Program-made: the position numbers and the translations under genes | Notes under the pieces: model-generated | Databases searched by the model: none | What the model was told of the DNA's origin: nothing | What the model saw: the letters and a program-made list of their open reading frames with translations, nothing else | In this document: in pieces, positions 8,116 through 41,421 of the stretch | Layout: every line of letters begins with the position of its first letter | Numbering within the stretch: position 1 is the first letter of the stretch | IMG/VR virus record: IMGVR_UViG_3300020202_000064 | Location: 1-64,000 of that record | DNA: 64,000 nt | Source of the DNA: a virus | Direction: 5' to 3' (one strand)

Positions 8116-9023
8116 ATTTTAAAAGGAATGGGGGTTGGATACTTAAAACCAGTGGGGTGCAACCGAGTATAAACCGTTCCGCCATTTTCGCCATTTTTCT
8201 GCAAAGGATATGGACACGTTCTTACACCAGAGTAGTCTAAAAGTTTGAGTGGCCCACTGTCTCGGTATAATTCTCCATAATATAAATACTTAAAACCCGA
8301 ATTTATAATGAGTTTGGCGCACGTAAGACATGGAGAATGAGTTAAAAACATTACCTTTTCTTTATCATCGGGAACAGCTTTTAACAGAGCGTTCATTTCG
8401 GCATGAATACAGCCGCATTTACCGGGGGTAGAGCTATCACAATCGTTGGCCAGTCCTTTGGCGTTACCATTGTAACCAAATCCATAAATTTGGTCCAATC
8501 TCTTATTTGCTATCAGCGCGCCAACCTTCAAACGTCTACAATGACTATTTTCGGCTACTGTATAAGCGAAAATCATATAATTCCAGAACCACGGAGCGCC
8601 CGTAAAACCGTCAATCTTTTCTCCGCGTTCCACGGCTTTATGGCACCGAGTATGTAAATCTTTATCTATTACAAGAAGATTGAGGGGGTGATTGTTTAGA
8701 GGGTTTCCGTCCTTATGGTGAACGATTTCATTCTCTTTAAGATTTATCCCCATTTCATTTTCTACAATCCAACGATGCTCTAAATATGTTTTATCATTAA
8801 CTCTGACTTTCCATACTGCATGTCCATCGGGTGATGTTGTTTCGGCAAATCGTACAACCCCACCAGAATTTATCAAATCTTTTCGACGTGGAATGTTGTA
8901 TTCTTCCATCCATTTATAAATCGTCGATTCGGCGACACCATATGTAGTAGATAAATCTTTAATACTTGGCATCTTTTCACCCCAATACGCTCCAAAAAGC
9001 TCGTCTTTTCCCGGTATATTCAT
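8112..9023 (-). CDS. HTH-HNH endonuclease fused to dCMP/cytidine deaminase
   Basis: A 303-residue two-module protein. Residues 1-40 hold a helix-turn-helix (DLSTTYGVAESTIYKWMEE). Residues about 75-130 are an HNH_3 endonuclease (HRWIVENEMG, IVHHKDGNPLNNHPLNLLVI). Residues about 140-303 are a zinc deoxycytidylate deaminase with CIHAEMNALL (HAE) and HSPCLTCAKLI (PCxxC). Phage dCMP deaminases make dUMP for thymidylate synthesis, while stand-alone HTH-HNH proteins are homing nucleases. Here they share one continuous frame with no stop or frameshift. Either a homing nuclease has fused to the deaminase or the HNH is a domesticated DNA-binding part. Confidence 0.85.
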   Translation of the reverse strand: MNIPGKDELFGAYWGEKMPSIKDLSTTYGVAESTIYKWMEEYNIPRRKDLINSGGVVRFAETTSPDGHAVWKVRVNDKTYLEHRWIVENEMGINLKENEIVHHKDGNPLNNHPLNLLVIDKDLHTRCHKAVERGEKIDGFTGAPWFWNYMIFAYTVAENSHCRRLKVGALIANKRLDQIYGFGYNGNAKGLANDCDSSTPGKCGCIHAEMNALLKAVPDDKEKVMFLTHSPCLTCAKLIINSGFKYLYYGELYRDSGPLKLLDYSGVRTCPYPLQKNGENGGTVYTRLHPTGFKYPTPIPFKI

Positions 9024-9299: not shown

Positions 9300-10676
9300 T
9301 TAGCGTCGTGGCGCTACGCCTGTGGTAGCATTCGACGAAGATATATTAAGCAATCCTGATGCTTCAAGCAAGCGCAAATTCACAAGATTATCTGTGAGAC
9401 TTGAGCCGCCCTTTTCGGTGCTGCCAGCGGTGATAACAAACTGCGGCACACCAATCTTGGAAAGCTTATCTGCAACATTGACATCACGATTAGCCGCGAT
9501 TTCAGCCAGTACACGGTCGCGCTCAGAGATAGCGCCCGCCAATACAAGTCGCTCCTTTTCAGCGTTTGCACGTGTAATAATAGCCTTGGCATCTTCCTCG
9601 GCGGTCTGACGTGCGAGTCGCGCCACTTCAAGATTACGATTAGCTTCGGTTTCAGCCTTTTGCTTTTCGAGTCGTGCGACCTCCAATTCGCGCGTTGCAT
9701 TCGTTTCGGCAACAGCCTTTTCCTGATTAGCCTTCAACTCGGCTACTTCCTTTTGCTTTTGTGCTTCGATAACGGCTGCGGCCTTTTCCTTATTAGCCTT
9801 TGCTTCGAATTCGGCCTTTTCGCGCAAACCCTGTTCTACAATCATGAGACGCTGTTGAGTTTCCTGTTCGCGCTGTGCCTTTGCAGATTCAGCCTTAAGG
9901 AATGAATCCTTCTTCTGAGCGAATTGCTTTCGGGTCTGTTCGTCATAATCAGTTTCGGTAATGGAAAACTGCGTGACGCCAATACCAAATGAGACATAGG
10001 GCGATACTTGTGAAACCTTCACCTTGTCGTCCTTATCTAATACGACTTCAGTGGCGAATACACGAATACCATTACCCTTTTCGTCCTTTTGGTCATCAAG
10101 AACGCGTTCGACGCGACGCATTTCATAAAGGCCCAAATTCAATTGTTCGGTTGCAACCTGATTGAATTCACCCTTGCGCGAAGACTGGTGCTCCGACGCT
10201 GACATAAGCGGACCGGTTGCCTTGAGCACATTTGAGATATGTCCCCAAACAGCACTCTTTACATTATCTTCATTACCACCAAACAAACGATGGAAGTGAC
10301 GCTTTTGTTCCTTTGTGGGCGGCGTTGCGATACGAATCATAACATCCATATCGGCAGTGCCACCGTCATTAAAGGTGACGCGTGTCGATTCGTCAGTTGG
10401 TGAATCCTTGGTCTTTTCCTTCGTAAATTCAAATTGATAATTACGTGGATAAGTCCACACACTGCCAAACCACTTCATATAGTAACCGGGACCATCAACA
10501 ACCTCAACTGTACCCCAAGGATATTGGAGAACCTGCCAATTTTGGTCATCATTTTTTCCGACCAGACCGAAGAAACTGGAAATAGCTACAATAATAGCCA
10601 AACCAATTGCTCCCCATTTAATGATTCCCTTAATTGGGAACGCGTTAGACGACGTATCGTTTTGTGTATACTTCAT
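9300..10676 (-). CDS. SPFH/band 7 (prohibitin-like) membrane protein
   Basis: A 458-residue protein. One transmembrane helix lies near residues 18-40 (IKWGAIGLAIIVAISSFFGL), followed by an SPFH domain (residues about 45-270) and a long Ala/Glu/Lys/Arg coiled coil (about 275-400) made of repeated A-E-x-A-N type units, then a short tail. SPFH proteins oligomerise into membrane cages; prohibitin and HflKC homologues regulate proteases. The downstream gene (10707-10952) is also a membrane-anchored coiled coil. A role in protecting the cell membrane or compartmentalising is inference. The family assignment is solid. Confidence 0.85.
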   Translation of the reverse strand: MKYTQNDTSSNAFPIKGIIKWGAIGLAIIVAISSFFGLVGKNDDQNWQVLQYPWGTVEVVDGPGYYMKWFGSVWTYPRNYQFEFTKEKTKDSPTDESTRVTFNDGGTADMDVMIRIATPPTKEQKRHFHRLFGGNEDNVKSAVWGHISNVLKATGPLMSASEHQSSRKGEFNQVATEQLNLGLYEMRRVERVLDDQKDEKGNGIRVFATEVVLDKDDKVKVSQVSPYVSFGIGVTQFSITETDYDEQTRKQFAQKKDSFLKAESAKAQREQETQQRLMIVEQGLREKAEFEAKANKEKAAAVIEAQKQKEVAELKANQEKAVAETNATRELEVARLEKQKAETEANRNLEVARLARQTAEEDAKAIITRANAEKERLVLAGAISERDRVLAEIAANRDVNVADKLSKIGVPQFVITAGSTEKGGSSLTDNLVNLRLLEASGLLNISSSNATTGVAPRR

Positions 10677-11009: not shown

Positions 11010-11492
11010 TTAAATGTATGTGATGCCGCGCGCAAATTTGAAAATTTGGTCATGGTGGTCGAACGCCAAAGATATTTGGTTATCAACAAGTTCTCGAAGA
11101 CTAAACCATCGAATTTCGGTGGCGTCACTTTGCGCCTTCGGACTGACAAATTGCATATCCCACAACGTCAAAACATAAACGATGGATATCGTGCGCCCGC
11201 GAGGGTCGCGCCCCGGTGCATCCTGAATCGTCAGGAAAGAAAAGGTTGTTTTGAGATTTGGGTCGTAAATATCAATTCCCGTTTCTTCTTTTAATTCTCG
11301 TGCGGCGGCAGCACGTAGAGACACATCTTGTATTTCGTCATGATGTGCTTCCGAATTGAAGAAGCCACCCGGAATAGCCCACATACCCTTGAACGGTTCA
11401 TTCGCCCGCTTAATAAGCAGGATACGGTCGCCACGCCTATCATATACAATGATATCTGCGGTGATATTTGCCCTCGGATATTCAGATTTCAT
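11010..11492 (-). CDS. Nudix hydrolase
   Basis: A 160-residue Nudix protein. The box runs from GGFFNSEAHHDE through RELKEETGIDI (residues about 42-75, all metal-binding Glu present, with an insertion between GG and REL). The fold resembles ADP-ribose pyrophosphatase or NrtR-like Nudix domains. It lies directly after nadE in the same orientation. Hydrolysis of ADP-ribose, the product of NAD-consuming defence enzymes, is therefore a plausible but unproven role. Confidence 0.8.
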   Translation of the reverse strand: MKSEYPRANITADIIVYDRRGDRILLIKRANEPFKGMWAIPGGFFNSEAHHDEIQDVSLRAAAARELKEETGIDIYDPNLKTTFSFLTIQDAPGRDPRGRTISIVYVLTLWDMQFVSPKAQSDATEIRWFSLRELVDNQISLAFDHHDQIFKFARGITYI

Positions 11493-11497
11493 GTGGA

Positions 11498-13186
11498 TTA
11501 AATTACATTTTCAAAACTAACGGGATGCCTTTGGGTAATTGGCAAATTGCGGCCAAATCCAAATGCGCGACGATGAATCCTCAAGCATGGGGGCGCCATC
11601 CGACGTTTGTATTCAGCACCATCAACCAGTTTAAGAATGCGCTTAATCTCCTTTAGAGTTAAATCTTGAATCAAGCCTTTGTTAAGGGAAATTTCGGTCC
11701 GGGTCAACAAATCACGTTCAAGATAGAGTTTGAGTAATGCGTCAAGAACTGGATAAGGCGGCAAACTATCGGTATCTTTCTGCCCTTCCCACAATTCAGC
11801 GCTGGGCGCTTTATCGATAATAGCGGTTGGAATGATTGGACCAGATTTGAATTCGTTGTACCAACGCGCCAAATCGTAAACTTCCATCTTGTATACATCC
11901 ATTAATACGCCCAAGCCACCAGCAACATCGCCGAAGATTGTACCATAACCAACGGATGCTTCAGATTTGTTAGTTGTATTGAGTACAAGCGCCCCATATT
12001 CATTACTAAACTCCATCAGAATCCGCATACGAATGCGCGGCTGTAAATTTTCAATGGTGAGACGTTTCGGCGGCGTTATTTCGTCTTTAAATGTTTTCGA
12101 GAACGTCTCAATTGCGTATTGCGTTTCCCACTCAATATTACGATTATATAGGCGGATACCCAGATTCTTACAGAGAAGAACGGAATCATCAACACTCCCC
12201 TTGCTAGAATACTGCGCGGGCATTGTTATTGCCGTCACGTTTTCCGCGCCAATCGCGTCACTAGCGAGCGCCAACACTACCGCACTGTCGATACCACCAG
12301 ATGAACCAACAACAGCACTCTTAAAACCGTTCTTCTTCATGTAATCCCGAAGACCGAGAACAAGGTGATTATAAATCAGCGCATTTTCGTCACAATTAGT
12401 TGTATACTCAAGACAGGTTCCGTCCAAATTAACCAACCACATCTCTTCCAAAAACCCGACGCCGCAACGAACACGACTTTTCGGAAATGCAACAAAACTA
12501 TGCCCATCAAAGATTAAGCTGTCTTGACCACCAACCTGATTGACATAAACAATTGGCACGCCATACTTCTTAGATAGTCGATTATACATATCATATCGCT
12601 GAGTATGTTTACCGATATGTGATGGCGAGGCGTTGATTGTAATCAAGGCGTCCGGCTGAAACAGTCCCATTGTATTAGCAACGGGGTTAGTTGGATAGAT
12701 TGGGGCATCACAAATCGCCTCGTCATTCCAACAATCTTCACAAATAAGCAATCCGAACGACTTTCCGCCAACTTTAAAATAGTTTTGTTGATTAAATTTG
12801 CCGGGTTCAAAATAACGCGCTTCATCAAACACGTTATAGGTTGGGAGTAATTGCTTGTGGTATCGCATTATCTCCAACCCATTCTTAAACACCACCGCCG
12901 AATTTTGAAGTGGCTTACCCACTCCCAGATTGCGTGTCACCACGCCTAAAACAATTGTTGCCTCGGTTTCCGTGGTTAGTTTTCGAATATCTTCAACATA
13001 AGCAAGCTGTTCCTCCACGAAGCCGCGCCGCAGCAACAAATCATTCGGCGGATAACCTGTAAGCGTAAGTTCTGGGAATACAATGATTTCTGCTCCGTGG
13101 TAATTTTTAATGGTAAGGTAAACTTTCTCAAAGTTCCCTCGTAAGTCACCGACAATAGGATTGAGTTGCGCCAGTAAGATTTTCAT
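11498..13186 (-). CDS. nadE: glutamine-dependent NAD+ synthetase
   Basis: A 562-residue protein with the full two-domain layout. The N-terminal nitrilase-type glutaminase has the Glu of FPELTLTGYPP, the Lys of HKQLLPTYN and the Cys of ICEDCWND. The C-terminal PP-loop synthetase (from about residue 275) has SSGGIDSAVVLAL. It converts nicotinate adenine dinucleotide to NAD+, using ammonia from glutamine. The length matches bacterial NadE (about 540-570) and every catalytic residue checked is present. It lies with pncB immediately upstream and pncA at 20330, giving most of the Preiss-Handler route. No nicotinate mononucleotide adenylyltransferase is visible in the window. Confidence 0.93.
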   Translation of the reverse strand: MKILLAQLNPIVGDLRGNFEKVYLTIKNYHGAEIIVFPELTLTGYPPNDLLLRRGFVEEQLAYVEDIRKLTTETEATIVLGVVTRNLGVGKPLQNSAVVFKNGLEIMRYHKQLLPTYNVFDEARYFEPGKFNQQNYFKVGGKSFGLLICEDCWNDEAICDAPIYPTNPVANTMGLFQPDALITINASPSHIGKHTQRYDMYNRLSKKYGVPIVYVNQVGGQDSLIFDGHSFVAFPKSRVRCGVGFLEEMWLVNLDGTCLEYTTNCDENALIYNHLVLGLRDYMKKNGFKSAVVGSSGGIDSAVVLALASDAIGAENVTAITMPAQYSSKGSVDDSVLLCKNLGIRLYNRNIEWETQYAIETFSKTFKDEITPPKRLTIENLQPRIRMRILMEFSNEYGALVLNTTNKSEASVGYGTIFGDVAGGLGVLMDVYKMEVYDLARWYNEFKSGPIIPTAIIDKAPSAELWEGQKDTDSLPPYPVLDALLKLYLERDLLTRTEISLNKGLIQDLTLKEIKRILKLVDGAEYKRRMAPPCLRIHRRAFGFGRNLPITQRHPVSFENVI

Positions 13187-13217
13187 TTGGTGAGAGAAAG
13201 AATGAGGAATATGAAAC

Positions 13218-13224
13218 CGTCAAG
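13218..13224 (-). promoter_or_regulatory. CTTGACG promoter-like motif
   Basis: CTTGACG on the minus strand, 32 nt before the nadE start. No clear -10 element is seen. Confidence 0.4.
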
Positions 13225-13250
13225 AAGAAAGTGGCTAATAATCCGCCATC

Positions 13251-13412
13251 TCATCCATTGATATGTTTTTCGTTGGTACTATACAACACAAATACAAAAC
13301 GCATATCATTAGCTGCGACGTGTTGTACGCGCCATCCATCATTCAACATTGATTGAACCTCATGAAAACACTCTATATTCCCAGCTTGTACCGTTATAAT
13401 TTTGTATTTCAT
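13251..13412 (-). CDS. small protein resembling DUF1737/DUF4177
   Basis: A 53-residue ORF (MKYKIITVQAGN...) with the pattern of short DUF1737/DUF4177 proteins: beta strand, helix ending in LNDGWRVQ, then a second strand pair. Its ATG overlaps the pncB stop (ATGA), which supports it. Function unknown. Confidence 0.6.
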   Translation of the reverse strand: MKYKIITVQAGNIECFHEVQSMLNDGWRVQHVAANDMRFVFVLYSTNEKHING

Positions 13413-14617
13413 AGGTTTTGCGCTACGTATTTAATATATTCCAAATATTGGGGGCTTACGCACATCGCCTTTTCTGGATTATTTGACAGTTTGGCAACGG
13501 GTTGTCCGTTACAATATGTCATCTTCATTACAACCTGCGGAACAGGAATGAACGTATCATTTGTCAGATTTGTTCCAATACCAAATGCCACATTTATTTC
13601 GGGCGAGATTTCCCGATGTATTTTGAACATTGTTTCAAAATCCAACCCATCTGAAAAGAATAACGTCTTGGTCTTGGGATTGATTTCATATAATTCATAC
13701 ATCTTAATCATTGTTTTAGCCCAATGAAAAGGGTCGCCGCTGTCATGGCGCAGGCCACGATATTTCGTCGCCAAATCCTTATCAAAATCTCGTAAGAATT
13801 TATCGGTTCCCAAAGTGTCGTTTAGTGCAATCGCCAGCGCGCTTCCAAACGTGTTATACCATAGATGAAAGGCATCAGACTGACTATCTTGTATACGCCC
13901 CATAGCCTGCATCCCCATGACGTATTCATGTCCAAACGTTCCAACCGGTTTAATATTTAAACGTCGGGCTAAATTTACATTACTTGTGCCAAAAATAACT
14001 TTATTTTTAACAAGTTCTTCAACCACAAATTCCTGCCAGTTAGCAGATAAACGGCGGCGCGTGCCAAATTCAATCAGATTAACGGGTGGCAAAGACTTTG
14101 TGACAAGTATTTCATTATATTCTTTGAGATTATTAATCTTGTCTTCTAAACGCGTCTTACCAGTGAGTTTAACACTGTCTTCGTGAATACTATTTCTGCT
14201 ACAATATCTTTTCGAATAGTGCTCGTTACAAATCGAAAGAATAAATGTTTCATATAGCATTATTTTATACCAAGGTCCAATAGCTTCCGGTAAATGCTTT
14301 CGGATATCGTTATCGACGCAGTAAGACACAATATCTCTTTCCGGACTGAGGGGTGAACCCATCAAAAAATGAATATAATCTTCGGTGAAATGACCTAATG
14401 AACGAAGATAATCCGCTTCGTCACGGGTAAGAGAAAGATTTTTTAATTCCATGATTCCTTCTTCTAAACCATAGGAATAACGCCAAAAATCAACCGCATC
14501 GATATTCCGAACAGACATGCGATAGCGCGCTTCTACTCTAGGAAATTTCTGGAAGATAAGTTGCCCTACGGTCAGCTTATATAAGTCCAAATCAAGAATT
14601 GATTTTATGATAGACAT
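13409..14617 (-). CDS. pncB: nicotinate phosphoribosyltransferase
   Basis: A 402-residue protein of the PncB family. It opens with ILDLDLYKLTVGQLIF, followed by IEFGTRRRLS, FGTSNVNLA, GTFGHEY (the phosphorylated His), RHDSGDP (phosphoribosyl pocket), FFSDGL and FGIGTNLTND. It makes nicotinate mononucleotide from nicotinic acid and PRPP. The motifs match nicotinate rather than nicotinamide (NAMPT) enzymes. It sits two genes upstream of nadE in the same operon, and the window also encodes a nicotinamidase, so nicotinamide released by NADases could be recycled. Confidence 0.92.
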   Translation of the reverse strand: MSIIKSILDLDLYKLTVGQLIFQKFPRVEARYRMSVRNIDAVDFWRYSYGLEEGIMELKNLSLTRDEADYLRSLGHFTEDYIHFLMGSPLSPERDIVSYCVDNDIRKHLPEAIGPWYKIMLYETFILSICNEHYSKRYCSRNSIHEDSVKLTGKTRLEDKINNLKEYNEILVTKSLPPVNLIEFGTRRRLSANWQEFVVEELVKNKVIFGTSNVNLARRLNIKPVGTFGHEYVMGMQAMGRIQDSQSDAFHLWYNTFGSALAIALNDTLGTDKFLRDFDKDLATKYRGLRHDSGDPFHWAKTMIKMYELYEINPKTKTLFFSDGLDFETMFKIHREISPEINVAFGIGTNLTNDTFIPVPQVVMKMTYCNGQPVAKLSNNPEKAMCVSPQYLEYIKYVAQNL

Positions 14618-14625
14618 TAGATTTA

Positions 14626-15135
14626 TTACTTTTTACTAAACTTAAAAGTTGGTTCGTAAGTTTCATTCCGGCAGGGTTTGTCATATGTTACCGACCAACC
14701 TTTCGCTTCGTATATTGGTTCGATATCAAGATAGCCTCGGTCAAAAATAGTTGAATGTCGTAGCTTGAGTTTTTTACTTATCAACCTTAGTATATCTTTC
14801 TGTTTAAATTGGGAGTACGAGCCACTCCAATTGGCCGCAATTAACTCGTTGAAGCTTTCGATAACTTCAGATGGTATCACCTTTTCTTTATGTTTCGTAA
14901 CCTCATCAAGTGTAATTGGGCGAATTGTACCGGGTTGAGGAATTTCAAGTTTTTGTTTAACCTGTTTCAGTTCTTCTTGGGTAAGCGCTGCTTCTATGGC
15001 GAATATTTCTGCCCACATTTTATTTGAATGCGCCTGTCCAGAGCCATCGGGGTCGTCCGATAAATAGCTATCTTCGAAATGTTGCTTTTGCTTTCGAGCC
15101 TCCAAATCCTTTTTCTGCTGCTCTAAAGATTCCAT
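14626..15135 (-). CDS. hypothetical protein
   Basis: A 169-residue protein with an N-terminal coiled coil (LEQQKKDLEARKQKQ), a middle helical part and a C-terminal beta region (GYLDIEPIYEAKGWSVTYDK). It is located between pncB and the kinase-like gene. No family is recognised. Confidence 0.55.
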   Translation of the reverse strand: MESLEQQKKDLEARKQKQHFEDSYLSDDPDGSGQAHSNKMWAEIFAIEAALTQEELKQVKQKLEIPQPGTIRPITLDEVTKHKEKVIPSEVIESFNELIAANWSGSYSQFKQKDILRLISKKLKLRHSTIFDRGYLDIEPIYEAKGWSVTYDKPCRNETYEPTFKFSKK

Positions 15136-15233
15136 TTTATAAATACGATTCCGGATTTAATCAGAAATACCAATGTAACCAAACCAAGTATGAACCCAAT
15201 TACAAGCGTTTCAAGATATTGAGAAAGTTTCAT
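15123..15233 (-). CDS. 36-residue membrane protein ending in TAG
   Basis: A small ORF (MKLSQYLETLVIGFILGLVT...) with one long transmembrane helix. Its ATG overlaps the kinase-like stop (ATGA). It ends in TAG, one of only five genes in the window to do so. The codons after TAG run into the next gene, so TAG most likely terminates here. Confidence 0.6.
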   Translation of the reverse strand: MKLSQYLETLVIGFILGLVTLVFLIKSGIVFIKWNL

Positions 15234-16939
15234 TTTGCAGAGATTTTATAAAGTGAATTGCCATCCACAATATAAGTGTCGTTTTTGTAAATTGTGATTT
15301 TTTCTCCACCGTTGAGCGGCGAGTCAACCACCTTAACCTTTGCATTGTCAAGGAAGATTTCCAATTTATCGCCATTTTCTGCAATACAAACACCGTTATC
15401 TTTGACACTGAAATTAACTTCTTCCAAGACAGCATCGTGCTCAACTCGTCCCGAATAAGAAGTGTGGTCCTTGTTGAATATCAGGGTATGGCGCTCATAT
15501 TTACCATTACGTTCTGCAATGATAATTGCCACTCCACTATCATATTTAGCGCCCACAACTCGGCAGCGGTCTAACTCCTTGATACGCACAATGGCACAGC
15601 GACCGGCTTCGTAAGGGATAGCGGCACGACAGGTTCCCAACATATCCTGCAACACTATCCCGTCAAAAATCTTATGATTGTGGAAGATATTTGCGATGTA
15701 CTGTTGTAGGGCATTTATCTTCACGCCCGAATTTCTGAAGGACAACTCAACCAAGGAATCACGTACCACCGTATAGACGCACCGATTCAAAACGAAGAAT
15801 CCATTTTGACACGCGATTTCCCCAAGGTGTTTTATACTAACATTATCGTAGGTCGAGTAGGATAGAGTCCCGTTTATCTTGTTCCAACGCAACCATACTG
15901 GCTTATCTCCATGTGTCGCGACCAAATCATGAACAATGCGCTTTTGAGTATAACCAGTGACAGGGGTAGAAGCGAAGAATGTCTTCGAATCACCCCAAAC
16001 CGTTCCATCTGTAATAACCCAGCACACTCCATCAATGAATCTAACGACACAAATTGGGGCTTTATAATTACGCACCTCAACGATGTCAAACTTATCATTA
16101 CTAAGTACAACCTTAGCAACGACTGAACCCATTGGCGCGATTGCGTCCGGTTCGGGCGGCAACGTCCTATCCCCCTTTTCAAAAATCGACTCGAACCAGC
16201 GTAGGTGTCCCTTTGGAATCACGTTCAAATCTTGACAGGCGGGTGGCAGCTTACACTTCTTATTAAAGACGCTAATCCCCTTGTCCATCATTTCCATCCA
16301 ATCTTTTGGCGCAAAGTCGGGATGACGCCCCTTATAAGGATGGCAACCAATGTACAACTGGAACATTGTAATTGCCATGCTGAACCAATCACTCAGTTCG
16401 GTGAAATTGTGTCCCTTTACCTTACGGTCCCGCACCGATTCCATCAATGCCGTGGCTGGATAAGAAGCCGTTTTATAGGAATCCACATCGATAAAGTATA
16501 CATTATCGAATTGCGCCGAAGTAAGAAAATTATTCTCATTCAAATCTACGCCCAAAATCTTGTGCGCATGAATTCCCTTAAGGGTATCCTGCATTATCTT
16601 GACCAGCGCCGCCGCATCTGTATTTGAAAAACCGTTTCTATCTCGGAACCCTTTCGAGAAGAGTTTACAGAGGAATTCGCAGTTTTTCACATACTTCATA
16701 ACAAAACCAACTGGATTGTTATTCTTGTATATGACTTCTTGCGGCCCAAGTACGTTGTTCAAATTGCGGAGTACCGACAACTCCACAATTTTACCCTCGG
16801 GAATCATCTTGGAGGCTTCATGATACAGTTTGTAAGCATCGTGCCCCTTTACGAAGATTGCACCTTCGCCGCCCGATGCAACGTAGTCAGATTGTGTTAA
16901 TGAGACGGTTTTACCGCCAACTGTATAGGTGCCAGTCAT
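15230..16939 (-). CDS. protein kinase-like protein of a TerY-P-type triad
   Basis: A 569-residue protein. Residues about 20-290 are an atypical protein kinase: glycine-rich GGEGAIFV, a candidate ATP Lys in AYKLYHE, GVDLNENNFL in place of HRDLKPxN, and YFIDVDSYK in place of DFG. A helical C-lobe has WFSMAITMFQLY. Residues 290-569 are a beta-rich region of unknown fold. A PP2C phosphatase (17780) and a vWA protein (19484) lie upstream in the same operon. This is the kinase/PP2C/vWA combination called the TerY-P triad in bacteria, linked to stress and tellurite-resistance systems. Activity is likely but the catalytic loop is divergent. Confidence 0.75.
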   Translation of the reverse strand: MTGTYTVGGKTVSLTQSDYVASGGEGAIFVKGHDAYKLYHEASKMIPEGKIVELSVLRNLNNVLGPQEVIYKNNNPVGFVMKYVKNCEFLCKLFSKGFRDRNGFSNTDAAALVKIMQDTLKGIHAHKILGVDLNENNFLTSAQFDNVYFIDVDSYKTASYPATALMESVRDRKVKGHNFTELSDWFSMAITMFQLYIGCHPYKGRHPDFAPKDWMEMMDKGISVFNKKCKLPPACQDLNVIPKGHLRWFESIFEKGDRTLPPEPDAIAPMGSVVAKVVLSNDKFDIVEVRNYKAPICVVRFIDGVCWVITDGTVWGDSKTFFASTPVTGYTQKRIVHDLVATHGDKPVWLRWNKINGTLSYSTYDNVSIKHLGEIACQNGFFVLNRCVYTVVRDSLVELSFRNSGVKINALQQYIANIFHNHKIFDGIVLQDMLGTCRAAIPYEAGRCAIVRIKELDRCRVVGAKYDSGVAIIIAERNGKYERHTLIFNKDHTSYSGRVEHDAVLEEVNFSVKDNGVCIAENGDKLEIFLDNAKVKVVDSPLNGGEKITIYKNDTYIVDGNSLYKISAK

Positions 16940-17121
16940 TTTATATAAATTTCCATCACCATTTTTTTATGTCGTCTCCACGTGTCTGCCGCCTGTTTCC
17001 TTCCGCATGTACAAAACTCAGTCATTGAGAATTCACAATTAGACAGGTGTTCGCGATATTTCATGACTTCATCACCCGCAAGAATCAAAGCATAAATATC
17101 TCTTTTTTCCGTATCGTTCAT
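16936..17121 (-). CDS. hypothetical protein with CxCGRK motif
   Basis: A 61-residue soluble protein with a Cys cluster (CEFSMTEFCTCGRKQA), possibly a small zinc site. It is coupled by ATGA to the kinase-like gene. No family is recognised. Confidence 0.55.
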   Translation of the reverse strand: MNDTEKRDIYALILAGDEVMKYREHLSNCEFSMTEFCTCGRKQAADTWRRHKKMVMEIYIK

Positions 17122-17297
17122 TTAAAATGTTTTGCCATCGCTGTTTCCTTCGCGGAACAACAACCACCATGCCTGCAAATATCTCCACCTTTACCCATAT
17201 AACTGCCGCACATGCAAAGGTTTTCGTCGATATCGCTATAAACCCAATTGTAATAGCCGCGTTTTAACTTATAGAAAATGAGCCATACATGCGTCAT
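17118..17297 (-). CDS. Cys-rich small protein
   Basis: A 59-residue protein starting MTHVWLIFYKLKR, with Cys/His residues typical of zinc binding (CMCGSYMGKGGDICRHGGCC). The internal ATG at 17297 is preferred because the longer frame runs antiparallel through the neighbour. Function unknown. Confidence 0.5.
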   Translation of the reverse strand: MTHVWLIFYKLKRGYYNWVYSDIDENLCMCGSYMGKGGDICRHGGCCSAKETAMAKHFK

Positions 17298-17469
17298 TTT
17301 CCCAATGAGAAAGTTCTTCATAGTGAATCGGTTTGGGAGTGTACATCCTGCGCTTACGAATAATCTGGCGACAACAAAGAGCACATTCTGTTATATGGGT
17401 GTGATACCAGCATCCTTTGTTTGGTTTGGGACCATTTCTGGTCATATGCATGCCGCTACCACGTTTCAT
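17269..17469 (-). CDS. Cys/His-rich zinc-finger-like protein
   Basis: A 66-residue protein with HTHITECALCCRQIIRKRR and a later CMAHF, a spacing fit for one zinc. Small zinc-ribbon proteins of this size are common in phage early regions. It overlaps the next gene by 29 nt. The start may be the later MTRNG. Confidence 0.55.
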   Translation of the reverse strand: MKRGSGMHMTRNGPKPNKGCWYHTHITECALCCRQIIRKRRMYTPKPIHYEELSHWENDACMAHFL

Positions 17470-17783
17470 TTAAATTGTGGAAATCGTTCCGTTCGGCCAA
17501 ACTTCACAAAAAAAAGATAATCTTTGGCGTTTGGATGATATTTTCTTCCGGAGCAAACTCCTTTCAAAGACTCTATCGCACCTTCTTTCGTCGCTCCACA
17601 AGCGGTGAATTCATTTACTCCCGCTTCTCCATATCCAGCCCAAGCGTATTGTGTGCCTACTAACGTAGCCCTGATATGACTCCCCACTAGGTCGAGCCGG
17701 ATTTTAAAACCCATTGTCTCTAACCAATGTAGAAAGTCAACCTTTTGATTTGACTCAATAATATTATCTATAATAACGCTCAT
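17466..17783 (-). CDS. hypothetical protein
   Basis: A 105-residue alpha/beta protein. It is ATGA-coupled to the PP2C gene upstream and the zinc-finger-like gene downstream. No family is recognised. Confidence 0.55.
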   Translation of the reverse strand: MSVIIDNIIESNQKVDFLHWLETMGFKIRLDLVGSHIRATLVGTQYAWAGYGEAGVNEFTACGATKEGAIESLKGVCSGRKYHPNAKDYLFFVKFGRTERFPQFK

Positions 17784-18631
17784 ATAAAATTAATTGTGGC
17801 AACTGAAATATCGTCAAAATGTTGCCAGCCATCCTTGGCGCATTGTCTCTTAAAAGCAATCATGCGTCGTTTGACAAATTCCCCATGGAAATTCTTATAG
17901 CCGCCAAGTTCACCAAAGAGTACATGATTTGCCATCGTCATATTAGAGTTGTCCTTCTTATGGAAAGTGTCGATACCATCAGAGAAGACCGACGCAAAAG
18001 CAAGATTTTTTGACGCGTCTGAATATTTTTCGTAATGAAATTTGACACCCGATTCGACCGTTTCGGGGACTTCTGTCAGGTGAGTTGGGGTTACGATATA
18101 TCCCGCGCGTGTGCCAAATTTCGTACCAAACACTCTTTCATATTCCTGTCGTCGTTCGGCATTCCGTAAATAAGAGAGGTAAAATGGCGCATTAGAATCG
18201 AATGAAATTTTGGTCAAATAACCATCATTCGATTTGTACTTGAAATAGAGTGAACCGTCTCCCCAACAAAACGAATATAGGTTATCGTTTAACTCGTCAT
18301 AGAGCAAAGCCACAATCGTAGAGTCTAGTAACGTTTCATCTGGGAACATTCTATTCCATGGCAGACTAAACGTACCATCTAGAATTGCCAAACCAAGTTC
18401 TACCTTGAGTGAGTCAATCTGACCGTTACGAATTAAGAATCTGGCCGCATTGATAAAGTGATACGTTAATACGCGCGCTCCCACATCTGTATCCATGCTG
18501 TTAGAACATCCATCCGCAACGATAGCATAATGATACCGCTTATCATCAACTATAAAACTTCCGCTTTTGGCGTAATCTTGGCAAAAGATATGTCCAGCAC
18601 CAATTTCGTAATATGAATCGGTTTTAATCAT
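17780..18631 (-). CDS. PP2C-family protein phosphatase
   Basis: A 283-residue protein with PP2C metal motifs: YAIVADGCSNSMDTDVGARV (first Asp-Gly), SFCWGDGSLYF (second Asp) and FASVFSDGIDTF (third Asp-Gly). The N-terminal CQDYAKSG matches the QD motif near the start of PP2C domains. The ATG at 18631 is used rather than the upstream TTG. It should dephosphorylate Ser/Thr, most simply opposing the kinase-like protein at 15230. Confidence 0.82.
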   Translation of the reverse strand: MIKTDSYYEIGAGHIFCQDYAKSGSFIVDDKRYHYAIVADGCSNSMDTDVGARVLTYHFINAARFLIRNGQIDSLKVELGLAILDGTFSLPWNRMFPDETLLDSTIVALLYDELNDNLYSFCWGDGSLYFKYKSNDGYLTKISFDSNAPFYLSYLRNAERRQEYERVFGTKFGTRAGYIVTPTHLTEVPETVESGVKFHYEKYSDASKNLAFASVFSDGIDTFHKKDNSNMTMANHVLFGELGGYKNFHGEFVKRRMIAFKRQCAKDGWQHFDDISVATINFI

Positions 18632-18839
18632 GCTTAAATTCAATTGTCATGCCCCATCCCACGTTCTTTATTCGGCAACCCATGTATTTTGCCATGCAAT
18701 ATTGACAAATTATCTTTTGATAATGCTTGTTATGTTCTTCTTCCCAACCCCAAGAAAATTCAATAAGTGGCCATTTCTCTTCACGCGCTTTTTGAACATA
18801 GACATCGATAATTCTGACGGTTCTGGGGTCAATGGTCAT
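18624..18839 (-). CDS. hypothetical protein
   Basis: A 71-residue protein starting MTIDPRTVRIIDVYV, with a CQYCMAKYMGCR segment that could bind zinc. The ATG is chosen because it overlaps the upstream stop (ATGA). A longer frame to 18974 is not needed. Confidence 0.55.
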   Translation of the reverse strand: MTIDPRTVRIIDVYVQKAREEKWPLIEFSWGWEEEHNKHYQKIICQYCMAKYMGCRIKNVGWGMTIEFKHD

Positions 18840-19279
18840 AGCGGATGCCACGCAGCACTCAATCCGAGACAATAAGCGAAGTTGGATTGAACATTTCGAG
18901 GAAAATAAGTAGCGTAGTATTGCATATAATCCCCACCAATACCGCCGCCCTCCGATTCTATTTTTACAACACAAGGATATTCTCTTGGATATTTTTTTAT
19001 CTTACTCTTGTAATAGTAGATTTTTTCATAATCTTCTTTGGTACGAACAAGATGAAAGTTGCCAATTTTCCTCGGGGGCAATCCATCAGACAAAATAAGG
19101 TCGTCCGTCTCAATTTTAAAACAGCCAAGATTAATTAGGTCGGCAAAGTTATATCGGTAGGGTGGAGACTGTTTGGAATGTTCCATGGAGTAGGTTCCAT
19201 CTCCGTTGGATAGAAACCGCTCTCCATCGTCGCGCACCAAACATTTCGGCAATTCGTTTTTAGATTTCTGGATTGACAT
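18836..19279 (-). CDS. hypothetical protein
   Basis: A 147-residue protein, Tyr/Lys-rich, with Gly-rich ESEGGGIGGDY near the end. It is located between the PP2C and vWA genes of the triad operon. No family is recognised. Confidence 0.55.
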   Translation of the reverse strand: MSIQKSKNELPKCLVRDDGERFLSNGDGTYSMEHSKQSPPYRYNFADLINLGCFKIETDDLILSDGLPPRKIGNFHLVRTKEDYEKIYYYKSKIKKYPREYPCVVKIESEGGGIGGDYMQYYATYFPRNVQSNFAYCLGLSAAWHPL

Positions 19280-19484
19280 AATAACCTTCTAAGAATAAAC
19301 GGGCTAGTTTTTTCTCGTCTTCTGAATAGTGTTCGGCGCAATCAGAGCCGCCACCACCCTCTATGCCATATTTACGGCAATATTTATCGTAATCGTAATC
19401 AGACCAAACTGCCGTCCCCAACACATAGTAAAGATACTGATGCGCCTTTACTACATGTTGGGGAGTGACATTCTCCAAATTCAT
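19260..19484 (-). CDS. small protein resembling the Ia domain of NAD-dependent DNA ligase
   Basis: A 74-residue protein. Its core, HQYLYYVLGTAVWSDYDYDK, matches the HxYYxxxxPxxSDxxYD pattern of the LigA Ia (NAD/NMN-binding) domain, but no adenylation domain follows. It may be a fragment or a stand-alone NMN-recognition module. Given the phage's NAD genes the resemblance is notable but unproven. The ATG at 19484 overlaps the vWA stop. Confidence 0.5.
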   Translation of the reverse strand: MNLENVTPQHVVKAHQYLYYVLGTAVWSDYDYDKYCRKYGIEGGGGSDCAEHYSEDEKKLARLFLEGYYVNPEI

Positions 19485-20221
19485 CAAATCGTAAGATTCT
19501 GTGATGGACCACCGGTTTTCAACGACTGACTACTCGAACTAATCGAACGACTTACAAAGTCGGCCAACTTAGCGAGTGCCTTCGCATCGGTCTTATCGAT
19601 ATGAACGAACTGGTCGAGACCTACCTGATTGGCGAAATCATCCAGATAATTTTTAATACCCGTTTCATCACCAACTCCAATTAGAATTACCTTGATAGAT
19701 TCAAGGGATTCGCTCTTACGAATCTTATCCAGAGTCGCCTTAATCTTGGAAAGGCTGGCGGTAATAGAAGAGTTCTCTTCGCCATCTGTCACAACGAATA
19801 TAACGCCATTGACGAGATAATCCATATCGGCCAATTGCTTCCCGTAGGTTGCAACTGCTTCAATGCCTTCCAGCGCCGAATCGAATAGCGCCGTACCACC
19901 AGCGGGGTTAAGTGAAATTTTCGACTCGTCGATTGTATCAAGACCTTGGAAGCCGTGAAGTTCATTCAAGTTCGTATTGAACGCAACCGCACGAATCAGC
20001 AGGTTTTCAGCACGAGGATTCTTGCGACAACTTCCAACAATCTCCTTGTAAGCCTTTTCGAGACCGGCCTTGAAGGGTTGTACAGAACCCGAAACATCGA
20101 TTGCAATACCAACGAGAGTATATTCGCTGGCTCCGAGGGTTTCCGGACGCTGTGCCGTGAACCCGAATTGTGAAACGGTATTAAGAACCGTCGTGTCAGC
20201 CTGACCCATTAATTTTGGCAT
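19484..20221 (-). CDS. von Willebrand A domain protein (TerY-like)
   Basis: A 245-residue vWA protein with an intact MIDAS: IDVSGSVQPF (DxSxS, about residue 40), the Thr in GGTALFDSALE, and VVTDGEENSS. The start at 20221 (MPKLMGQADT) is the first ATG; an upstream TTG would add 14 residues. TerY-type vWA proteins work with a PP2C and a kinase, both encoded downstream here. The C-terminal tail is Ser-rich (SRSISSSSQSLKTGG). Confidence 0.8.
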   Translation of the reverse strand: MPKLMGQADTTVLNTVSQFGFTAQRPETLGASEYTLVGIAIDVSGSVQPFKAGLEKAYKEIVGSCRKNPRAENLLIRAVAFNTNLNELHGFQGLDTIDESKISLNPAGGTALFDSALEGIEAVATYGKQLADMDYLVNGVIFVVTDGEENSSITASLSKIKATLDKIRKSESLESIKVILIGVGDETGIKNYLDDFANQVGLDQFVHIDKTDAKALAKLADFVSRSISSSSQSLKTGGPSQNLTI

Positions 20222-20225
20222 AAGA

Positions 20226-20333
20226 TTATTTGTTATTTCGATTATATTCTTCCGCAATCGCAATTTTGTTAGCTATAACAATAACGACCATACAGAAGAT
20301 AAAAAATAGAGCTAAAGGAAGTATACAACTCAC
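20226..20333 (-). CDS. 35-residue membrane protein (GTG start)
   Basis: A tiny ORF starting with GTG in a GTGA overlap with the pncA stop, mostly one hydrophobic helix (CILPLALFFIFCMVVIVIA) with a charged tail. It fills the gap before the vWA gene exactly. Confidence 0.5.
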   Translation of the reverse strand: MSCILPLALFFIFCMVVIVIANKIAIAEEYNRNNK

Positions 20334-21121
20334 TTGAAGAAGGTAGTTGTCTTGGCGAACTGTACACCCTGCGCCTTCACTTCCTTTACAAAGTCATCCG
20401 CAAGGTTTTCGAAACCGGGCACGGGGCTAACCGCATCCTCAAGAATAACGAACTTCTTGGCGTGTTGAACACCGAATTCAGCGATGATTTGGCGCACAGT
20501 CGTCGCAACACAATGAGATAGTGCCTCACCACAAATTAACAAAACATCCGCATCTTCCAACCGTTTAACGAAAGTGGTATTAATGTTTGTGGTTGGGTCG
20601 GCGGGGTCTGGAACTTCCGCTGCTACAGCGCCAAAATGTTCACTGAAGATGTTGCTTCCTTTCGTTACAAAATCAGCGACAGCAAAATACTTATTCTGCC
20701 ATTCATTTACCGCATCAATAACGCAGGGATACAACCCGTGACCCCATGTTGAAATCAAACAATGTTGTGGCCAAATAACCATGCCGCCCGCAGAAAGACT
20801 CCGAACATAATCAGAATACCGCTTTTGCCACGTTGGATTGGTCGCCCTATATTTTCCGGAAACTACATCATCTTTCGTAATAAACGTAAAGGGTGGAGGG
20901 TTGTTTCCCTTAGAATCTTGCCAACAAACGCCATGTGCAACGTGCAAAGGAACGTGGGAATCAAGTGTGATGCGAATGTCATCAATTTTATCCCCATGTT
21001 GGCGAATCATAGCCGCAATGCGTTCGCAATCCTTATCGGCACCTTTAACAAACAGCGCGCCTTTTGGGTCACAAAAGTCGTTCTGGCAATCCACTAGGAC
21101 CAGTTGAATATTTTTACTCAT
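20330..21121 (-). CDS. pncA: nicotinamidase (isochorismatase fold)
   Basis: A 263-residue cysteine hydrolase. Visible motifs are LVDCQNDFC (catalytic Asp), TLDSHVPLHVAH (metal-binding Asp and His residues), VIWPQHC and ICGEALSHCVATT (nucleophilic Cys). Nicotinamidase turns nicotinamide into nicotinate, the substrate of pncB at 13409. It is longer than typical bacterial PncA (about 210), with insertions around residues 75-105. This completes the first two steps of Preiss-Handler salvage in the window. Confidence 0.85.
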   Translation of the reverse strand: MSKNIQLVLVDCQNDFCDPKGALFVKGADKDCERIAAMIRQHGDKIDDIRITLDSHVPLHVAHGVCWQDSKGNNPPPFTFITKDDVVSGKYRATNPTWQKRYSDYVRSLSAGGMVIWPQHCLISTWGHGLYPCVIDAVNEWQNKYFAVADFVTKGSNIFSEHFGAVAAEVPDPADPTTNINTTFVKRLEDADVLLICGEALSHCVATTVRQIIAEFGVQHAKKFVILEDAVSPVPGFENLADDFVKEVKAQGVQFAKTTTFFK

Positions 21122-21767
21122 ATTTAGTTAAGATTCGTTGATATTTTTGATATTTTCTTTTCAGACCAATTGCATCATTAGGATAACCCTGATAGATGAA
21201 CCGACAAAAGTCAAGTACGAATTTTCGTTTTCCGAAATAAATCATTGACCATCTGGAATTTTTAAATTTACGAAGAGATACTTTTGGGATAATTTTTAAT
21301 TTTTTACAAATCTCAAAAACGTATTTCCAATTCTGATTAAACGGACCCGTAATACAAATTCTAGCTGCACCATCTTTCGCTATGGCTATACATCCATCAC
21401 CGTCTATTATTCCACGATAAAAATATCGCTTCAAAGAACTGGGTATAATTTTTAACACTTTGGTTGGACTTTTAGCTTTAGAACAATAATCTAATCTTTG
21501 TAGAAACCTTGCTAACTTTCTATCCCAAATATTTATTGTTTTAAGTAATTTTCCTTTTCTCGGTTTATATTCATAGACGTTCCAGTTTCCAATATTATTG
21601 AAAACCACATGGAGATTTTTAAAATCTTCGTTATTTATGGTTATCTGAACGTAGTGTTTTTTCTTTCTATAATCTCCAACACAGCCGTCTGCCCATAGAA
21701 ATCCTAGAAAATATGCAATTTCGGCATTTTTTATGTTTAAAAATTGTTCGATTGGAACTTTATCCAT
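21114..21767 (-). CDS. LAGLIDADG homing endonuclease
   Basis: A 217-residue protein with two dodecapeptide motifs, IAYFLGFLWADGCV (about residue 17) and YFYRGIIDGDGCI (about residue 117). It is therefore a single-chain two-motif enzyme. It is free-standing: no intron or intein boundary is visible, and it only overlaps the pncA start and the upstream gene stop by 8 nt each. It is AT-richer and Lys/Phe-richer than its neighbours, suggesting recent acquisition. Confidence 0.85.
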   Translation of the reverse strand: MDKVPIEQFLNIKNAEIAYFLGFLWADGCVGDYRKKKHYVQITINNEDFKNLHVVFNNIGNWNVYEYKPRKGKLLKTINIWDRKLARFLQRLDYCSKAKSPTKVLKIIPSSLKRYFYRGIIDGDGCIAIAKDGAARICITGPFNQNWKYVFEICKKLKIIPKVSLRKFKNSRWSMIYFGKRKFVLDFCRFIYQGYPNDAIGLKRKYQKYQRILTKYE

Positions 21768-22095
21768 TTTGTCCAAAAACCCTAAATTCCAGCAAACCAA
21801 GACGTTGCAATTCGTCAATCACTTCGTTCCATAGGTCAGTGGGAATATCTGTGTACGAAGAATATACTTTCACGCGGTCCGGAAAAGCTTCCTTGAACGG
21901 TTTTTTGATTGAAGTATTCCAATCGAAGAGACGAAATGCGTTTTTAGCCGCGCCGATGCTAGGCCAGACGGCCTTGCCACTCTGCGCTTTTATAATCTTG
22001 CCGCGCCAGTAGATTTGAACAGCTTTACCTTTTCGGAATTCATATCCAGATAAAAGCTTGTCCATTGCGTCGATGATTGATTGAGGTAAATTCAT
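21760..22095 (-). CDS. hypothetical protein
   Basis: A 111-residue soluble protein with a basic, beta-rich middle (GKAVQIYWRGKIIKAQSGKA). It is coupled by ATGA to the upstream gene. No family is recognised. Confidence 0.55.
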   Translation of the reverse strand: MNLPQSIIDAMDKLLSGYEFRKGKAVQIYWRGKIIKAQSGKAVWPSIGAAKNAFRLFDWNTSIKKPFKEAFPDRVKVYSSYTDIPTDLWNEVIDELQRLGLLEFRVFGQNG

Positions 22096-23682: not shown

Positions 23683-23969
23683 CCGTGTCCTTCTTTTAAT
23701 TTTTCTGGAATACTTCTTTTGGTAATTCTATAGGTAGAATTCTCAGTCTCAACAAGATTGCCCTCAATCGAAATAACTACCGAAGTGTTGAATACGCCCG
23801 CCCTACCAGTGGGGTAGTTTATATTGCGCATTCGCCACATTTTAATATGGTCGCCAACAGTAATATCCCGAATCAGAATTCCCTCTACCCAATATTTCAC
23901 CGTCACCCCGTTCGAATTGGGGTTTTTCTCCGCAACCTTTGTAATTCGAACGTAGGTATCTTTTTTCAT
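23679..23969 (-). CDS. hypothetical protein
   Basis: A 96-residue, beta-rich protein (ITVGDHIKMWRMRNINYPTG), coupled to the kinase gene upstream. It may be a small barrel. No family is recognised. Confidence 0.55.
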   Translation of the reverse strand: MKKDTYVRITKVAEKNPNSNGVTVKYWVEGILIRDITVGDHIKMWRMRNINYPTGRAGVFNTSVVISIEGNLVETENSTYRITKRSIPEKLKEGHG

Positions 23970-24454
23970 TTGGTTACTTGTTTTAGCCCGACTATTTCAC
24001 AGTCCTTGGTTATATTATAAATTCGGTCGAAACCTTCGTGATAGGTAGGTGTCACAAACTTAGAAGCTTGCTTATGGATTACAGACTCAGGCACCTTACG
24101 CTGTCTTCCTTCTTGGAATTTAAGCGCCCGCTTTACATCCGGTTCGGTATAATGACACTCCAATCGAGTGTTAAAATTCGCTCGAACACTAAGATTGGCC
24201 CTATCAACCGGTTTAAGTGACGTTGCGTCGACAATCACTGACTTACCCTCTTTTAAAGCTTCGTGAATACGGCGGGGTAGGATGACTGTAAAAATTAAAC
24301 CGTTTTTACTTTGGTCTTCCTCCGTGCCGCTCAATTCCTTTCGTATGGAATCGGTGGAAATGATAACAGCACCAGTCTGTTGGGCAAGTGTCTGTGCGTA
24401 TGTACTCTTACCAGAAGATGAGATACCCGCAAGAATAAAAAGTGTCTGTTGCAT
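23966..24454 (-). CDS. polynucleotide 5'-kinase-like P-loop protein
   Basis: A 162-residue P-loop kinase with Walker A GISSSGKST (residues 10-18), the substrate Asp in VIISTDSIRKEL, and VIVDATSLKPVDRANL, the arrangement seen in the kinase half of T4 Pnkp and related AAA_33 proteins. No phosphatase domain is attached. A 5'-OH RNA kinase would prepare ends for the two RNA ligases of this phage. Nucleoside kinase activity cannot be excluded. It lies in the cluster with RNase Z and the Thg1-like enzyme. Confidence 0.75.
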   Translation of the reverse strand: MQQTLFILAGISSSGKSTYAQTLAQQTGAVIISTDSIRKELSGTEEDQSKNGLIFTVILPRRIHEALKEGKSVIVDATSLKPVDRANLSVRANFNTRLECHYTEPDVKRALKFQEGRQRKVPESVIHKQASKFVTPTYHEGFDRIYNITKDCEIVGLKQVTK

Positions 24455-24465: not shown

Positions 24466-24726
24466 TTACTTTTTTTCTATTTCGTCAACTTTATTTTCGG
24501 TAGGATTGTTAACTGGCGCATTTTGAGATAGTTGCAATTTTGCTGCCGCTTGCCGCTGCATCAGCCAATTGAGAGCATCCAATACCATAGGAGAGTGGCT
24601 ATCCCCAAAATGTTGGCGCACGACTTCTCGGGTAACCTCGCTATGCTGCCAGAGACGGTCGATAGCGTTAGAATAACGTAAAAGCGTCACGTATACTTCA
24701 TCCTGTAATTGTATAAATTTACTCAT
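24466..24726 (-). CDS. hypothetical helical protein
   Basis: An 86-residue, all-helical-looking protein (starts MSKFIQLQDEVYVTLL), ATGA-coupled to the Thg1-like gene. No family is recognised. Confidence 0.55.
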   Translation of the reverse strand: MSKFIQLQDEVYVTLLRYSNAIDRLWQHSEVTREVVRQHFGDSHSPMVLDALNWLMQRQAAAKLQLSQNAPVNNPTENKVDEIEKK

Positions 24727-25502: not shown

Positions 25503-25504
25503 AA

Positions 25505-41101: not shown

Positions 41102-41103
41102 AA

Positions 41104-41178
41104 TGGAGTCCCGTATCGAACTTGAATCGATTTATTCGCGTTACGAATGCGAGGCATCACCATCAATGCTTACAGGAC
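41104..41178 (-). tRNA. tRNA-Thr (CGT)
   Basis: Acceptor GTCCTGT/ACGGGAC (one wobble), T73 and CCA encoded, anticodon loop TTCGTAA. The anticodon stem has an A31-C39 mismatch that recurs in this array. Confidence 0.85.
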
Positions 41179-41336: not shown

Positions 41337-41339
41337 AGA

Positions 41340-41416: not shown

Positions 41417-41421
41417 AAAAA

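What the first reader, a model, noticed from the sequence alone, without database searches (positions are those of the whole stretch)
11498..21121. Preiss-Handler NAD+ salvage genes (pncA, pncB, nadE) in a phage
Known phage NAD-restoring routes use NAMPT- or ADP-ribose-based steps. Here nicotinamidase, nicotinate phosphoribosyltransferase and NAD synthetase are all present with a Nudix gene, which would recycle nicotinamide released by NAD-depleting defences. The adenylyltransferase step is not in the window.
Basis: partly seen in the sequence, partly recalled or inferred. Interest (0 to 1): 0.82.

Follow-up and report, generated by a model that had tools for sequence, protein, structure and literature searches.

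The report
Phage NAD+ salvage operon with kinase
This large bacteriophage carries an operon that could rebuild the cell's NAD+ from nicotinamide, and the same operon carries a protein kinase, a phosphatase and a peptide-binding (vWA) protein that travel with the first enzyme in dozens of other giant phages, so NAD+ supply during infection may be under phosphorylation control.

Summary
The genes are real. nadE, pncB, a divergent pncA and a NadM-type Nudix gene all lie on one strand with catalytic residues intact. No adenylyltransferase is found in the window or in the rest of the 94-kb virus record. A close relative (L300, 205 kb) has the same operon with NadD between nadE and the Nudix gene, exactly where the window lacks it.

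Of 51 viral loci found by the kinase alone, 49 carry pncA. NAD genes join the cassette in a large minority of loci. Chromosomal operons of candidate-phyla bacteria (for example L278) show the window's order next to NrtR, NAD kinase, NadD and NadA. So the unit is an NAD+ salvage operon coupled to a phosphorylation triad.

Preiss-Handler genes in phages are not new: phage Phosso has all of them in one cluster, and a wastewater huge phage was reported with four nicotinamide-to-NAD+ enzymes. I found no report of the triad coupling. Whether the operon counters NAD-depleting defences or feeds phage replication is untested here. New variant of a known kind.

The parts
20330..21121 (-). pncA: divergent nicotinamidase, 263 aa; first gene of the cassette; catalytic D11, K154, C204 and metal ligands D54, H56, H120
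19484..20263 (-). vWA protein with an intact MIDAS motif (DVSGS, GGTAL, TDGEE); by comparison with relatives the true start is probably the ATG at 20221
   Evidence: (relative L070 hits PF00092)
17780..18643 (-). PP2C-type phosphatase with the acidic motifs kept (ADGCS, WGDGS, SDGID, DDISV); true start probably the ATG at 18631
   Evidence: (relative L053 hits PF13672 at 3.6e-14)
15230..16939 (-). protein kinase (K37, D132, N137, D151) with a C-terminal all-beta domain, predicted beta-propeller (276-568)
14626..15135 (-). unknown gene between kinase and pncB; shared with nearest relative L053 (45% identity)
13409..14617 (-). pncB: nicotinate phosphoribosyltransferase, 402 aa, active-site His in GTFGHE
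11498..13186 (-). nadE: glutamine-dependent NAD+ synthetase, nitrilase (E, K, C) and PP-loop (SSGGIDS) sites intact
11010..11492 (-). stand-alone Nudix hydrolase, nearest to the Nudix half of NadM; relative L300 has nadD between nadE and this gene
16936..17783 (-). three small open frames (61, 88, 105 aa) between kinase and PP2C, overlapping end to start or closely spaced; function unknown
18836..19487 (-). two small open frames (147, 75 aa) between PP2C and vWA; function unknown
21114..21818 (-). LAGLIDADG-like open frame directly upstream of pncA; probably a mobile insertion, not part of the pathway

Best explanation
The stretch 21121 to 11010 (- strand) is most likely a single phage operon: pncA, vWA, PP2C, kinase, pncB, nadE, Nudix. 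Its enzymes run the deamidating (Preiss-Handler) NAD+ salvage route: PncA turns nicotinamide into nicotinate, PncB makes nicotinate mononucleotide, an adenylyltransferase that is the host's or lies outside this record makes deamido-NAD, and NadE amidates it to NAD+. The Nudix enzyme probably clears ADP-ribose or a related dinucleotide. The kinase (kinase domain plus a predicted beta-propeller), PP2C phosphatase and vWA protein form a phosphorylation switch that most likely controls this pathway or its first enzyme. The enzyme identities and the gene linkage are shown by sequence and comparison. The reactions, co-transcription, the regulation by the triad and the benefit to the phage are inferred.
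For: Enzyme identity. Phage context: DnaB, UvsX-like recombinase, RNR, thymidylate synthase, DnaE-type polymerase, 31 tRNAs. Cassette: of 71 non-redundant loci 56 have all four genes, 52 of them on one strand in the order pncA-vWA-PP2C-kinase. Reverse test: 51 viral loci found with the kinase alone contain pncA in 49, vWA in 48, PP2C in 51. NAD linkage: of 50 virus records with this pncA, 27 have PF04095, 29 PF01467, 30 PF02540, 21 all three; among 25 control virus records of 84-230 kb chosen without regard to pncA, none has PF02540 or PF04095 (Fisher 1e-7 and 1e-6). Same order with NadD in relative L300. Chromosomal Parcubacteria operon L278: NadD, NadA, NAD kinase, NrtR, then pncA-vWA-PP2C-kinase-PRT-nadE. 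Beta-proteobacterial loci with pncA-PRT-nadE and no triad (L265, L270, L293, L295) tie this pncA family to NAD salvage.
Against: More than half of the triad loci have no other NAD gene within about 8 kb (34 of 56 in the pncA scan, 27 of 47 in the kinase scan, 15 of 24 in genomes), so the cassette may have a job beyond salvage. The adenylyltransferase is missing from the record. PncA's family scores are below curated cut-offs. No activity, expression or phosphorylation data. The kinase domain model is of low confidence (mean pLDDT 69). Counts treat related contigs as independent, and the control set is mostly a set of related phages.
Confidence: 0.72

Rival explanations
1. Counter-defence: the operon exists chiefly to restore NAD+ after host NADase defences (TIR, SIR2 and others) have cleaved it to nicotinamide and ADP-ribose.
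For: The first substrate, nicotinamide, is the released product; NAD+ rebuilding by phages is an established counter-defence through NARP1 (PMC12774641, PMC13232231). The Nudix gene is of the NadM type. Relative L300 has a sub-threshold Macro-like gene next to pncA.
Against: No infection data; nicotinamide also arises in uninfected cells; bacterial chromosomes carry the same operon, so it does not need a phage-specific reason.
Confidence: 0.35
2. Replication supply: the operon raises NAD(H) for phage enzymes such as NAD+-dependent DNA ligase and for nucleotide synthesis, whatever the host's defences.
For: 16 of 39 searched records from pncA-bearing or NAD-salvage phages encode NAD+-dependent ligase, in G044 (L123) directly beside the operon, against 0 of 8 controls. 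The window's phage has RNR and thymidylate synthase.
Against: No NAD+-dependent ligase in the window's own 94-kb record, and most pncA-bearing records lack one.
Confidence: 0.35
3. The pncA-vWA-PP2C-kinase cassette is a separate signalling system whose hydrolase acts on some other amide, and the NAD genes are only frequent neighbours.
For: The cassette is much more constant than its link to NAD genes. Kinase, PP2C and stand-alone vWA sets occur in other bacterial conflict systems (PMC7159879). Biuret, triuret and other amidases also resemble the model, lower in the list.
Against: The best structural matches are nicotinamidases and the active-site set is conserved throughout. The same family stands in pncA-pncB-nadE and NrtR loci with and without the triad. 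NAD genes are absent from 25 control records.
Confidence: 0.2
4. The record is bacterial DNA or a host operon carried by chance, not a phage adaptation.
For: Homologous operons exist in bacterial chromosomes.
Against: Phage replication genes and a one-strand array of 31 tRNAs; nearest pncA relatives are all virus contigs; the isolated phages Phosso and Atu_ph07 carry the same enzyme set, though the triad was not shown in them.
Confidence: 0.03

Closest known systems
Preiss-Handler NAD+ salvage (PncA, PncB, NadD, NadE), including NrtR-linked bacterial operons
   Same: Same enzymes; operon order matches Parcubacteria locus L278
   Different: No NadD in the record; no NrtR found; embedded vWA-PP2C-kinase triad; carried by a phage
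Preiss-Handler genes already present in phages: Sinorhizobium phage Phosso PV764938, wastewater phage 5-SewaE (PMC10747093), Agrobacterium phage Atu_ph07
   Same: Phage-borne PncB and NadE with an adenylyltransferase and an isochorismatase-family hydrolase in Phosso and Atu_ph07; four nicotinamide-to-NAD+ enzymes reported for 5-SewaE
NadV/NadM/NadR phage salvage (KVP40 type; called NARP2 in the counter-defence literature, from memory)
   Same: Rebuilds NAD+ from nicotinamide; Nudix of the NadM type
   Different: Amidated route: nicotinamide goes directly to NMN, without PncA or NadE
NARP1 (Adps, Namat)
   Same: Phage pathway that rebuilds NAD+ using nicotinamide
   Different: Uses ADP-ribose pyrophosphate; a different two-enzyme chemistry
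Kinase, PP2C and stand-alone vWA sets of bacterial conflict systems (GAP1-N2 systems in PMC7159879; TerY-P triad, from memory)
   Same: Same three domain types in adjacent genes
   Different: Here nearly always with a nicotinamidase, often with NAD salvage; kinase has a C-terminal predicted beta-propeller

Membership tests
Preiss-Handler NAD+ salvage pathway | Nicotinamidase | tested here: met
   Fold, active site and gene context; family scores below curated cut-offs; activity not tested
Preiss-Handler NAD+ salvage pathway | Nicotinate phosphoribosyltransferase | tested here: met
   Above NCBIfam cut-offs; solved relatives are all nicotinate enzymes; phage NadV family only weak, 3e-11
Preiss-Handler NAD+ salvage pathway | Nicotinate-nucleotide adenylyltransferase | tested here: inconclusive
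   None in the 94-kb record, which is a fragment; present at the expected place in relative L300
Preiss-Handler NAD+ salvage pathway | NAD+ synthetase | tested here: met
   NF010588 above cut-off; PDB relatives are glutamine-dependent NAD+ synthetases
NARP1 | Adps and Namat | not tested
   No search was made for these families; the enzymes found here work by other chemistry
NARP2 / NadV salvage | Nicotinamide (not nicotinate) phosphoribosyltransferase plus NMN adenylyltransferase | tested here: not met
   The phosphoribosyltransferase is of the nicotinate type and no adenylyltransferase is in the record
Kinase-PP2C-vWA triad (TerY-P-like) | Three neighbouring genes for a Ser/Thr kinase, a PP2C phosphatase and a stand-alone vWA protein | tested here: met
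   With pncA, order and strand constant in 52 of 71 viral and 23 of 80 genome loci; motifs intact; in the window's own proteins PP2C and vWA are recognised through relatives
Kinase-PP2C-vWA triad (TerY-P-like) | Association with Ter (TerD, TerC) or GAP1-N2 partners | not tested
   Ter and GAP1-N2 families were not searched for; none appeared among proteins annotated here
Known anti-phage defence systems (PADLOC) | Match to defence protein models | tested here: not met
   Only weak hits: kinase to PD-T4-6, at most 20 bits

The most novel reading that the evidence does not exclude
A third class of phage NAD+ reconstitution, under phosphorylation control: the propeller-kinase, PP2C and vWA proteins sense NAD+ loss or its products and switch the nicotinamidase-led salvage pathway on during host defence; the same switch regulates NAD+ salvage in candidate-phyla bacteria.
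Probability: 0.25. Interest if true: 0.82.

Novelty: new variant of a known kind. Interest (0 to 1): 0.62.

Why it matters
NAD+ is a battleground between phages and bacteria, and two phage routes to rebuild it are already known. This operon shows a third route in a phage and, more unexpectedly, ties nicotinamidase to a kinase, phosphatase and vWA set that is kept together in dozens of large phages and in bacterial chromosomes. If the triad controls NAD+ salvage, that would be an undescribed way of regulating NAD+ metabolism, testable with a handful of purified proteins.

Tried and rejected
Single-sequence viral scan with pncA found nothing; the alignment query worked. 'Acinetobacter phage MD-2021a' hits were dropped as bacterial chromosome (ribB, serB, psd and phoR neighbours). 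A random-pattern scan for size-matched control contigs gave almost none above 100 kb, so ribonucleotide reductase relatives made up most of the control set. A hypothesis that the Nudix gene is NrtR was rejected: it is 160 aa and no NrtR wing domain was matched, unlike L278 and L289. Paper searches for triad, NrtR, nicotinamidase or Preiss-Handler combinations in phages gave nothing relevant, apart from the GAP1-N2 mention. A family 'F9' in the gene maps runs antisense over pncA in some loci and was ignored.
Full report
WHAT IS THERE. The window is bases 1-64000 of a 93,999-b IMG/VR virus record. On its - strand, between 21121 and 11010, lie in transcription order pncA (20330-21121), a vWA protein (19484-20263), two small frames, a PP2C-type phosphatase (17780-18643), three small frames, a kinase (15230-16939), an unknown gene (14626-15135), pncB (13409-14617), nadE (11498-13186) and a Nudix gene (11010-11492). 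Gaps are short or absent except about 220 bases between pncB and nadE. The record is a phage: DnaE-type polymerase, DnaB helicase, UvsX-like recombinase, RNR, thymidylate synthase and a one-strand array of 31 tRNAs. No capsid, portal or terminase gene was identified among the proteins checked, so the record looks like a fragment.

THE ENZYMES. NadE and PncB pass curated equivalog or subfamily cut-offs and align end to end with solved NAD+ synthetases and nicotinate phosphoribosyltransferases; the nitrilase E/K/C, PP-loop and active-site His motifs are in place. PncA is divergent and misses the curated cut-offs. It was tested in three further ways. Its catalytic (D11, K154, C204) and metal (D54, H56, H120) residues are invariant across 37 aligned sequences (assignment of roles from the known Pyrococcus and yeast enzymes, own knowledge). 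Its AlphaFold model (pLDDT 96) has nicotinamidases from Acinetobacter, yeast, Leishmania and Pyrococcus as its top PDB matches. And the same protein family stands in front of pncB and nadE in beta-proteobacterial loci L265, L270, L293 and L295, and behind an NrtR gene (NrtR_WHD 89.9 bits against 27) next to NAD kinase, NadD and NadA in Parcubacteria locus L278.

THE MISSING STEP. PF01467 gives nothing at E<=1 in the whole record, with 14 of 14 positive controls. In the nearest relative found, L300 (205 kb; pncA 64%, kinase 55% identical), the operon has the same order but a NadD gene lies between nadE and the Nudix gene (108.8 bits to PRK00071.1-3, under its cut-off of 150; PF01467 33.7 over 21). 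In another relative, L053, a NadM-like NMNAT-Nudix protein lies upstream of pncA. The window thus seems to have lost, or moved, the step; the host's NadD could supply it (inference).

THE UNEXPECTED PART. Comparing window genes with 86 phage and virus loci that were mostly chosen for pncA (a few for pncB or nadE) showed that the genes kept with pncA most often are the kinase (71 loci), vWA (71) and PP2C (55), far ahead of nadE and pncB. After removing near-copies, 56 of 71 loci have all four and 52 keep strand and order pncA-vWA-PP2C-kinase. The reverse search from the kinase alone brought 51 viral loci: 49 with pncA, 48 with vWA, 51 with PP2C, 20 with each of pncB and nadE; many of these contigs are the same as in the pncA scan. 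The kinase has the catalytic K/D/N/D set; its C-terminal half is predicted as a beta-propeller, and the top Foldseek match is LRRK2, a kinase followed by a WD40 domain (the kinase part of the model is poor). PP2C and vWA motifs are intact; in the window's own copies those two families are recognised only through better-scoring relatives.

LINK TO NAD METABOLISM. Of 50 virus records with this pncA, 27 encode a PF04095 enzyme, 29 a PF01467 enzyme, 30 an NAD+ synthetase and 21 all three. Of 25 control virus records of 84-230 kb chosen without regard to pncA (most by ribonucleotide reductase similarity, a few by a random pattern), none has either PF04095 or PF02540. Full operons include L300, L123/L303 (pncB-pncA-vWA-PP2C-kinase-nadE-nadD) and L102/L345. 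In bacterial and archaeal genome records, 24 of 80 pncA loci have the four-gene cassette, 23 in the same order, and several Patescibacteria add pncB and nadE in the window's order. Many of these are MAG contigs and some could be misbinned phage, but L278 carries NadA, NAD kinase and NrtR and looks chromosomal. On a pncA tree virus and genome sequences are intermixed (21 label changes, at least 5 forced by supported branches), so the genes have probably moved between phages and cells repeatedly.

WHAT IT MOST LIKELY DOES. Shown: presence, intact active sites, linkage. Inferred: that the enzymes convert nicotinamide to NAD+ with the host's adenylyltransferase, and that the kinase, phosphatase and vWA protein control that flux. 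Two purposes remain open. Counter-defence is attractive because NADases release nicotinamide, and phages are known to rebuild NAD+ through NARP1 (PMC12774641, PMC13232231) and NadV-type enzymes (PMC9503650). Replication supply is supported by NAD+-dependent ligase genes in 16 of 39 searched records from pncA-bearing or NAD-salvage phages, in L123 directly beside the operon, against 0 of 8 controls; but none is in the window's record. I cannot choose between them.

NOVELTY. Preiss-Handler genes in phages are not new. Phage Phosso's deposited annotation names nadE, pncB and an adenylyltransferase and calls the neighbouring isochorismatase-family protein a hydrolase. PMC10747093 reports a huge phage with four enzymes from nicotinamide to NAD+. 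Two surveys of phage NAD+ genes list NadV, NadM and NadR types only in the passages read (PMC9503650, PMC7824862). Kinase, PP2C and stand-alone vWA sets are known in actinobacterial GAP1-N2 conflict systems (PMC7159879). I found no report, in the open-access library searched, of the nicotinamidase-triad cassette or of its coupling to NAD+ salvage. Subscription papers were not searchable, so this is not proof of absence.

LIMITS. Record counts treat related contigs as independent; homologue lists were ranked by similarity to phage seeds; controls are mostly related phages; all function is from sequence and predicted structure.

Noticed in passing
window 36991-53364, - strand: Array of 31 tRNA genes on one strand, including one with anticodon CTA (46587-46664, called tRNA-Pyl by ARAGORN), a possible amber suppressor; only 4 of 60 predicted minus-strand genes of 100 aa or more end in TAG.
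   Followed up: partly
window 5151-6233, 34584-35588, 23966-24454, 24723-25508: RNA-repair-like set: two RNA ligases, a polynucleotide-kinase-like protein and a Thg1-type tRNA-His guanylyltransferase.
   Followed up: no
window 21114-21818, - strand: LAGLIDADG-like open frame overlapping the start of pncA by 8 bases; in relative L300 a different gene sits there.
   Followed up: partly
L300:4375-4866 (+): Gene directly upstream of pncA in the nearest relative looks Macro-domain-like but only at a sub-threshold score (PF01661 14.3 bits); would fit an ADP-ribose theme.
   Followed up: partly
window 8112-9023, - strand: Deoxycytidylate deaminase domain fused to an HNH-endonuclease-like domain in one open frame.
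   Followed up: no
window 9300-10676, - strand: SPFH/Band-7 protein following the operon; Band-7 domains also appear in vWA-based conflict systems (PMC7159879), link not tested.
   Followed up: no
L264, L267 (Bradyrhizobium) and L086, L087, L089: pncA-vWA-PP2C-kinase cassette in Bradyrhizobium genomes, in a stretch whose neighbours look like a mobile element, and in IMG/VR contigs taken from isolate genomes; no other NAD gene near.
   Followed up: partly
L236: The four-gene cassette on a contig filed as a Lokiarchaeota MAG; misbinned phage or an archaeal virus not distinguished.
   Followed up: no
phages collection, CAKLQH020000008 and CAKLQF020000012: Records named 'Acinetobacter phage MD-2021a' hold housekeeping chromosomal genes around pncB and look like bacterial contigs.
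   Followed up: yes
G000:C1 about 79700-83200 and 91600-92500 (L011): Two aminotransferase-like genes and a glycosyltransferase in the part of the record beyond the window.
   Followed up: no
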